Positions 40,232 through 44,123 of a DNA stretch of 46,778 bases are shown piece after piece. Location: the NCBI GenBank assembly GCA_003141315.1, contig PLLP01000019.1:1-46778 (forward strand). Direction: 5' to 3'. Position numbers and translations under genes: made by a program. Position 1 is the first letter of the stretch. Every line of letters starts with the position of its first letter. The DNA comes from Phycisphaerales bacterium. GTDB lineage: Bacteria > Planctomycetota > Phycisphaerae > Sedimentisphaerales > Anaerobacaceae. The notes under the pieces are model-generated. The model saw only the letters and a list, made by a program, of their open reading frames with translations, made no database searches and was not told where the DNA came from.

Positions 40232-40347
40232 ATTTCGCTGACTTTGTAGAGAAAATACGTCAGTATTTTCGTGGACGAGGAAGATTTTTTCGGAAAAAGT
40301 TCACTTTTGGATGAAAAATCTTCCGAGAACACCAAGTCAGCAAAAAT
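40232..40347 (-). repeat. Three-branch structured element, left copy
   Basis: Read on the minus strand it starts ATTTTTGCTGACTTGG and ends AAGTCAGCGAAAT. The ends pair over 12 bp with one G-T. Inside are a long hairpin (GGAAGATTTTT pairing with AAAAAATCTTCC, flanked by CTCG and CTCGTCCAC) and a second hairpin GAAAATAC-TGAC-GTATTTTC. The architecture is the same as the right copy at 43851-43967, in opposite orientation, with the hairpin stems differing in sequence. Confidence 0.75.
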
Positions 40348-40487
40348 CCCTCTGTGTGCCGAAGGTCCGCCGCAGGCGAATGCCCTCTGTTATCTCTGTG
40401 GTAAAAATCTGTCGTTGGTCTGTCGTATTGAGTCTTTAAAAATCCGTGTAATCTGTGAAATCTGTGGCTTATTTTATTCTACTTTTT

Positions 40488-40640
40488 CCTTTTGTGCCTT
40501 TTTGTGGCTAATATTTCTCTGTGGCCTCTGTGCTCTCTGTGGCTGAATTAGTCGTTAGTCCGCCGCGGCGGATAGTATTCAGTATTTAGTTATAAAAAGA
40601 ATCAGTGTTAATCAGTGTAATCTGTGGCTTCTTTTGTTCT
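40488..40640. repeat. Left arm of the inverted repeat flanking ileS
   Basis: The reverse complement of 43627-43797. Shared blocks run outward from ileS: AGAACAAAAGAAGCCACAG, ATTACACTGATTAACACTG, TATAACTAAATACTGAA, TTCAGCCACAGAGAGCACAG, AAATATTAGCCAC and GGCACAAAAGG. This arm carries a CCGCCGCGGCGGA insert at 40560-40572 where the right arm has only three bases. Confidence 0.85.
40559..40572. repeat. TCCGCCGCGGCGGA palindrome in the left arm
   Basis: A perfect palindrome replacing three bases of the right arm (compare 43698-43704). It acts as a 'filled site' of the dispersed GC palindrome family. Confidence 0.7.
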
Positions 40641-43627: not shown

Positions 43628-43797
43628 GAACAAAAGAAGCCACAGATTACACTGATTAACACTGATTCTTTTTATAACTAAATACTGAATACTAAATACT
43701 AACGACGAATTCAGCCACAGAGAGCACAGAGACCACAGAGAAATATTAGCCACCCGCCTTCGTTAAAACTACGGCGTGGCAGGCAAGGCACAAAAGG
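43627..43797. repeat. Right arm of the inverted repeat flanking ileS
   Basis: It begins on the last base of the ileS stop codon and matches the left arm 40488-40640 in reverse complement. It carries a 33-bp insert (CCGCCTTCG...GGCAGGCAA, 43753-43786) where the left arm has AAAAA, between AGCCAC and GGCACAAAAGG. Confidence 0.85.
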
Positions 43798-44123
43798 AAC
43801 GAAAAAACTAGACACGGATTAACACAGATTTACACAGATTAACACGGCGAATTTCGCTGACTTGGTGTACTCGCAAAAATTTGCTTTTTTAAGCAAGCTT
43901 AAACCTCAAATTTTCACTCGTACACGAATCCCAACGAGTTGGTATTCTTTTAAAAGTCAGCGAAAATAAAGAGAAGAAAGATGCGGAATTTTTTAACGCT
44001 GGCCGAAATGCGGTTTTTAAAAGCATATTGACGCGAGGTGAATGAGGATTTATAGTTAATTCGTTGGTATTATAGTTATCCGCCTGTGGCGGAATGGAAA
44101 ATAGGTATAGCGCCCCAATATCC
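43798..44123. repeat. Periodic repeats, structured element and palindrome right of ileS
   Basis: 43809-43848 is made of 11-nt CACAGATTAA/ACACAGATTT units. The three-branch element follows at 43851-43967. A TCCGCC-TGT-GGCGGA palindrome stands at 44079-44093, 31 bp past the end of the KAP gene. I see no gene in this gap. Confidence 0.7.
43851..43967 (+). repeat. Three-branch structured element, right copy
   Basis: Closing stem TTTCGCTGACTT (43852-43863) with AAGTCAGCGAAA (43954-43965), 12 perfect pairs. Hairpin A: GTGTAC (43865-43870) with GTACAC (43920-43925), then AAAATTTG (43876-43883) with CAAATTTT (43907-43914), then TTTAAG-CAAG-CTTAAA. Hairpin B: CCAAC-GA-GTTGG (43931-43942) within an outer AAT/ATT pair. 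Total 117 bp against 116 for the left copy. Confidence 0.78.

What the first reader, a model, noticed from the sequence alone, without database searches (positions are those of the whole stretch)
40232..43967. Two copies of a 116-117 bp three-branch structured element in opposite orientation around ileS
Seen: both copies have a 12-bp closing stem (TTTYGCTGACTT/AAGTCAGCGAAA), a long hairpin A bounded by GTGTNCTCG and CTCGTNCAC, and a hairpin B between GAA and TTC. The stems inside A and B differ in sequence between copies but remain paired (GGAAGATTTTT/AAAAAATCTTCC versus AAAATTTG/CAAATTTT; AAATAC/GTATTT versus CCAAC/GTTGG). Conserved structure with changed sequence points to selection on folding, as RNA or single-stranded DNA. 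No known riboswitch or RNA family comes to mind. It could be a structured RNA, a REPIN/MITE-like element moved in trans, or a recombination site.
Basis: partly seen in the sequence, partly recalled or inferred. Interest (0 to 1): 0.85.

Follow-up and report, generated by a model that had tools for sequence, protein, structure and literature searches.

The report
Dispersed three-branch foldback DNA element
Both elements next to ileS belong to a family of roughly 113-bp repeats scattered through uncultured planctomycete genomes that keep one three-branched fold while their sequence changes, most likely a small mobile element that depends on another gene's enzyme.

Summary
Both copies fold into a three-way junction far better than shuffled DNA. 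Covariance models find 5 copies in the window's genome and 217 matches in 38 of 89 genomes of its family; in a coarser phylum sample only the own genome of 392 matched. Across 118 copies 37 of 38 pairs show two-sided changes; with one copy per genome, 34 of 38. No Rfam family matches the element. The ileS setting looks incidental. In 112 of 114 copies a motif of 10-nt repeat arrays lies within 80 bp on the hairpin-A side, on one strand; copies within 2 kb of each other all point one way. In a 38-copy subfamily, single stem changes give A.C as often as G.T (54 vs 51), as decaying dispersed copies would. Best reading: a non-autonomous MITE/REPIN-like structured repeat within larger intergenic mosaics; the mobiliser is unidentified. 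RAYT transposases co-occur in part but do not adjoin the copies. No clear target-site duplication or clean empty site was found.

The parts
40233..40345 (-). three-way-junction element, copy 1 (A-first orientation on the - strand)
40233..40244 (+). copy 1 closing stem P1, one arm (TTTCGCTGACTT)
40334..40345 (+). copy 1 closing stem P1, other arm (AAGTCAGCAAAA)
40251..40270 (+). copy 1 hairpin B
40271..40332 (+). copy 1 hairpin A, with internal loop and apical loop
43852..43965 (+). three-way-junction element, copy 2 (A-first orientation on the + strand)
43852..43863 (+). copy 2 closing stem P1, one arm (TTTCGCTGACTT)
43954..43965 (+). copy 2 closing stem P1, other arm (AAGTCAGCGAAA)
43865..43925 (+). 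copy 2 hairpin A
43926..43947 (+). copy 2 hairpin B
43813..43840 (+). triple 10-nt repeat array (CACRGATTNA) on the A side of copy 2
   Evidence: G000:C5:43813-43840; for the general association
40349..40401 (-). CACAGAG-type repeat array, broken by a GC-rich palindrome, on the A side of copy 1
   Evidence: read by eye
43620..43753 (+). array region, inverted copy of 40504-40647 (88%)
40504..40647 (-). array region, inverted copy of 43620-43753 (88%)

Best explanation
The element is one member of a dispersed, presumably non-coding, non-autonomous repeat family of about 113 bp. Its unit is a foldback: closing stem P1, a long hairpin A with a conserved internal loop and apical loop, and a short variable hairpin B. 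Shown: the family, the fold, its presence at many unrelated places, its single orientation relative to neighbouring repeat arrays, and a pattern of stem changes in copies that looks like decay. Inferred: it spread by mobilisation in trans of the folded single strand, or as part of the larger mosaic, by an enzyme that reads the fold and loops rather than the stem sequence; selection acted on copies that still moved, and resident copies then decay. By analogy with REPINs the likeliest kind of enzyme is an HUH or other single-strand nuclease; which one is not identified.
For:: 5 copies in the own genome; 38 of 89 genomes of the family, up to 32 matches in one; 118 copies, 37 of 38 pairs with two-sided changes, 87.0% of cells paired against 66.9% shuffled, covariation score 0.563 against 0.203 shuffled and at most 0.105 when slid; 34 of 38 pairs with one copy from each of 24 genomes; a T.C mismatch (G.A on the other strand) kept in 101 of 118, so the hairpin is not simply kept perfect; in G070, G075 and G022 the sequence shared between copies is largely the 113 bp itself; 20 proteins (18 near copies outside the window, hand-picked from the 140 reading frames, and 2 of the window) share no Pfam family and none is a transposase; 4 of the 20 had no match; in a 38-copy subfamily, single stem changes are 54 A.C, 51 G.T and 51 other; 20 of 97 placed copies lie within 500 bp of a contig end, 3.0 expected, as for repeats; two mosaic copies in G072 (L196, L238) have only a 14-nt remnant of P1 in the element's place.
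Against: No clear target-site duplication: over 225 settings the best show flank identity 0.34-0.41 against 0.29-0.35 in re-paired controls, a weak excess (z up to 5.3) that I did not explain. No pre-insertion site with both flanks intact: in G066 and G067 the site of a G014 copy lacks the whole mosaic, but the next genes differ too. The remnants in L196 and L238 could be deletions of a palindrome. The fixed orientation, the array partner and the longer shared unit in G071 and G072 also fit spread of whole mosaics; in G005 and G029 the 113 bp do not stand out clearly from their flanks. Stem changes still show constraint or recent spread: 0.087 differences per stem site against 0.153 per unpaired site, and 41 of 53 double changes restore a Watson-Crick pair. 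No mobilising gene found: a small RAYT subfamily is in 27 of 38 bearing and 14 of 51 other genomes (Fisher p 8.5e-5, relatedness not corrected, and 4 of the 5 profile sequences came from bearing genomes); 11 bearing genomes have none; copy numbers do not correlate (rho 0.09).
Confidence: 0.6

Rival explanations
1. It is a structured RNA (strand with hairpin B first), a small RNA or mRNA-borne element whose fold binds a protein; dispersal is secondary.
Against: Within a subfamily single G.T and A.C stem changes are equal (51 and 54), where a working RNA should favour G.U on its own strand. On all 118 copies the answer depends on the pairs counted: 221 G.T and 123 A.C (A-first strand) with all pairs, 95 and 121 after I left out five loop-adjacent pairs, chosen after seeing the counts. 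Sampled neighbours are unrelated. Gene orientation is mixed, though the A-side gene points away in 53 of 80 cases. No Rfam match.
Confidence: 0.2
2. It is a passive module of BIME-like intergenic mosaics, copied only by recombination and duplication of the larger mosaic; the fold serves as DNA (cruciform or protein-binding site).
For: An array motif lies within 80 bp on the A side, same strand, in 112 of 114 copies (opposite strand 3; random windows 11.6%); density 2.49 per 50 bp against 0.03 on the other strand and 0.11 background. Shared unit up to about 460 bp in G071 and G072. 17 of 17 neighbour pairs within 2 kb in one set are head-to-tail and 12 of 12 in an overlapping set, by my comparison 23 distinct pairs.
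Against: In G070, G075 and G022 the shared part is mostly the 113 bp alone. Near-identical copies follow arrays of different sequence type. A strict array pattern occurs in other families of the order where no full-length element was found (one half-length match in G046).
Confidence: 0.15
3. It is a recombination site such as an integron attC or a phage or plasmid attachment site.
For: A folded single-strand site with conserved unpaired bases; clusters in one orientation.
Against: Gaps between clustered copies are 6-1184 bp, mostly too short for genes; no integrase among the 20 scanned proteins; one exact pattern found nothing in viral contigs. The attC core motif (recalled) was not searched for with a tool.
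Confidence: 0.04

Closest known systems
REPINs and REPs linked to RAYTs (PMC3116915, PMC3733652)
   Same: Short dispersed intergenic foldbacks thought to move in trans; reported REPIN excision leaves about 6 end bases, which resembles the P1 remnants seen here.
   Different: REPINs are two inverted REPs whose family adjoins a RAYT gene; this unit is one closing stem with two unlike hairpins, its close neighbours are head-to-tail, and no copy adjoins the 20 transposase loci examined.
Bacterial MITEs: Correia/NEMIS, ERIC, RUP, RPE, YPAL (review PMC2229807)
   Same: Roughly 100-200 bp, terminal inverted repeats in most, stable folds, many copies.
   Different: No clear target-site duplication; stem sequences differ widely between copies while pairing is kept; tied to repeat arrays in one orientation.
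BIMEs (mosaic intergenic repeat clusters; abstract of PMC2817692)
   Same: One of several repeat modules combined in intergenic DNA.
   Different: The modules are others (10-nt arrays, a 144-bp module, the three-way junction), and they share one orientation, whereas REPs in BIMEs alternate.

Membership tests
REPIN | two REP sequences in inverted orientation | tested here: not met
   Neighbours within 2 kb: same orientation 17 of 17 (A7) and 12 of 12 (A6, overlapping set). The two window copies, 3.5 kb apart, are opposite. The unit has one closing stem and two unlike hairpins.
REPIN | RAYT gene flanked by the repeats | tested here: not met
   No element at E up to 1 in 20 fetched Y1_Tnp loci with up to 1.5 kb flank, out of about 70 listed matches. 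By coordinates three Y1 genes lie 1.8-3.3 kb from an element: G029:C125, G029:C19, G005:C2. 11 of 38 bearing genomes lack the small RAYT.
REPIN | dispersed foldback repeat | tested here: met
MITE | terminal inverted repeats and multiple copies | tested here: met
   closing stem 92.4% paired in 118 copies; multi-copy
MITE | no coding capacity | not tested
   A crude caller put 21 of 118 copies inside a frame of 130 aa or more; not followed up.
MITE | target-site duplication | tested here: not met
   117 copies, no clear duplication; weak unexplained excess
MITE | empty sites in relatives | tested here: inconclusive
   neighbouring genes differ; two remnants that may be deletions
MITE | ends shared with an autonomous element | not tested
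   no such search was made
Known RNA family (Rfam 15) | score above the gathering threshold | tested here: not met
   the one match is a tRNA elsewhere in L142
BIME-like mosaic | several repeat modules combined in intergenic DNA | tested here: met

The most novel reading that the evidence does not exclude
The element is added in one direction at the end of 10-nt triple-repeat arrays by an undescribed enzyme that recognises the three-way-junction fold, so that array and foldback form a directional, structure-read system for building intergenic mosaics, different in kind from RAYT/REPIN or DDE/MITE pairs.
Probability: 0.12. Interest if true: 0.8.

Novelty: new variant of a known kind. Interest (0 to 1): 0.5.

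Why it matters
A well-supported family of structure-conserved repeats (38 of 89 genomes of one family; 37 of 38 pairs with two-sided changes) without an assigned mobiliser. It would give planctomycetes a REPIN-like system of another architecture, accounts for part of the contig breaks in these assemblies, and is a case for asking how a folded repeat is kept by selection on movement while resident copies decay.

Tried and rejected
Known RNA families: no match to the element. RAYT mobilisation: Y1 transposases in 17 of 20 genomes, with and without the element; no element in 20 fetched loci; a subfamily profile gave partial co-occurrence. A spaced exact pattern in the own genome found nothing, not even the known copies. 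Viral contigs: none to one exact pattern. Target-site duplication: not clear. Orthologous site of the G014 copy: neighbouring genes differ. Control of a fixed gene set: 20 sampled proteins are unrelated. Picking the working strand by G.T/A.C counts: depends on the pairs counted. Kink-turn reading of the internal loop: weighed by eye, spacing does not fit; no tool used. Literature: nothing on these repeats seen in the listings (open-licence PMC only). Papers: PMC3733652 abstract, section list and passages; PMC2229807 and PMC3116915 passages; all others listings only.

Full report
The two copies are real. Copy 1 is window 40233-40345 (long hairpin first on the - strand), copy 2 is 43852-43965 (+ strand). 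Both fold as a three-way junction on either strand, with RNA z-scores of -3.5 to -4.8 and DNA z-scores of -4.6 to -6.1. The anatomy in these two copies, read with hairpin A first, is: P1 arm (12 nt), one G, hairpin A (61-62 nt), hairpin B (20-22 nt), a 6-nt linker, and the second P1 arm.

They belong to a family. blastn of copy 2 found three more places in the own genome. A covariance model (R1, 5 sequences) found those and copy 1, 5 full copies above 100 bits, plus four weak hits on the opposite strand of known copies. In 60 genomes (own and relatives) 11 had matches. A second model (R2, 41 sequences) matched 38 of 89 genomes of the family (14 of 32 of the better-quality ones), 217 matches summed from its table, up to 32 in one genome. 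In a phylum sample of 392 genomes only the own one matched; that search scored only 9 candidates per genome and loses weak matches. One half-length match lies in another family of the order (G046). An exact pattern hit 32 stretches of named genomes, 31 titled Planctomycetota, Phycisphaerae, Phycisphaerales or Sedimentisphaerales and one uncultured bacterium; viral contigs gave none.

The fold is conserved while the sequence is not. On 118 copies (E up to 0.001, 100 loci searched), 37 of 38 pairs have two-sided changes, 87.0% of cells are paired (66.9% after shuffling), and the covariation score is 0.563 (0.203 shuffled; at most 0.105 with slid partners). The alignment was fitted to the model and copies are related, so these counts lean towards the structure; with one copy from each of 24 genomes, 34 of 38 pairs still have two-sided changes and 88.4% of cells pair. 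Two neighbouring positions of hairpin A are mostly unpaired: T.C in 101 of 118, and at the next T.T in 55, with some pairs. The apical loop reads G(CUYG)C on the B-first strand in at least 82 of 118 (the list shown covers 107). The kept mismatch argues against a process that merely perfects palindromes.

Setting. On the A side lie arrays of about 10-nt repeats: 112 of 114 copies have at least one motif within 80 bp on the same strand and 92 have two or more, against 3 and 0 on the opposite strand and 11.6% and 2.1% of random windows of the same loci; the mean density falls from 2.49 per 50 bp next to the element to 0.4 at 250-300 bp. The arrays differ in type between near-identical elements. 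A strict triple pattern occurs in 46 of 161 genomes of the order, in several families, with no control matches; it is too strict to show the looser arrays (G071, 19 elements, has none). Copies within 2 kb of each other are always in the same orientation in the sets examined: 17 of 17 pairs in A7, 12 of 12 in the overlapping A6, by my comparison 23 distinct pairs. In G071 and G072 the shared unit is longer, about 300 bp upstream and about 27 bp downstream; in G070, G075 and G022 it is largely the 113 bp; G005 and G029 are unclear.

Mobility or not. For: many places, unrelated sampled neighbours (20 proteins, 4 without any Pfam match, none a transposase, no shared family; two are DNA methyltransferases of restriction type from different families), an excess at contig ends (20 of 97 within 500 bp, 3.0 expected), and decay-like changes: in a 38-copy subfamily 156 single stem changes split 54 A.C, 51 G.T, 51 other, next to 53 double changes of which 41 restore a Watson-Crick pair (these are cells, not independent events). 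Stem sites differ less than unpaired ones (0.087 against 0.153), so constraint or recent spread remains. Against: no clear target-site duplication, no clean empty site, no mobiliser. Two mosaic copies in G072, L196 and L238, have a 14-nt P1 remnant in the element's place: excision footprints or palindrome deletions. Further junctions in G069, G071 and G011 show a similar short form with other DNA upstream.

RAYT transposases were the obvious candidates. Y1_Tnp genes are present in 17 of 20 tested genomes, with and without elements; none of 20 fetched loci holds an element, though by coordinates three such genes lie 1.8-3.3 kb from one (G029:C125, G029:C19, G005:C2). A small RAYT subfamily is in 41 of 89 genomes: 27 of 38 with the element, 14 of 51 without. 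The association is nominally strong (p 8.5e-5), but the genomes are related, 4 of the 5 profile sequences came from bearing genomes, 11 bearing genomes lack the gene, and copy numbers do not correlate (rho 0.09). RAYT is therefore not supported, but not excluded.

Which strand works is undecided. The B-first strand folds lower in 32 of 41 copies and has RNA-like loops, but mismatch counts on the A-first strand are 221 G.T and 123 A.C over all pairs, and 95 and 121 without five loop-adjacent pairs that I excluded after seeing the counts. Gene orientation is mixed (16, 11, 23, 30 of 80), with the A-side gene pointing away in 53; 21 of 118 copies fall in a crude reading frame of 130 aa or more, not followed up.

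Verdict: a new, well-supported family of structured dispersed repeats, best read as a non-autonomous mobile element of MITE/REPIN-like kind with its own architecture. A function at individual sites, including beside ileS, was not shown and is probably incidental.

Noticed in passing
window 43813-43840 and many loci (L048, L039, L143): Arrays of three ~10-nt repeats (CACRGATTNA, CACGAAGG, CGCAGAGGA and similar) fill intergenic DNA in one orientation; a strict pattern occurs in 46 of 161 genomes of the order with zero control matches. Function unknown.
   Followed up: partly
L057:5302-5445: A 144-bp dispersed module (AAATTGGGTTTG ... TTTTGCATAA) with many matches in related genomes.
   Followed up: no
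L138, L144, L196, downstream of the element or its remnant: Another recurrent module that looks structured by eye, GTGTATCTGCTGATAC ... GCGGTTCTCCGC.
   Followed up: no
L069:1-2784 (own genome, contig C14): A class I tRNA synthetase frame (looks like valS) carries an in-frame Y1_Tnp (RAYT-like) domain.
   Followed up: partly
window 40504-40647 and 43620-43753: 88% identical inverted repeat of array DNA on both sides of ileS.
   Followed up: partly
window 38072-38192 and 38349-38467: 91% direct repeat.
   Followed up: no
window 36983-37912: Reading frame with HNH_3 and a weak AP2 match below its cut-off, like a free-standing homing endonuclease.
   Followed up: no
window 44124-45515: KAP family P-loop NTPase next to copy 2.
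   Followed up: no
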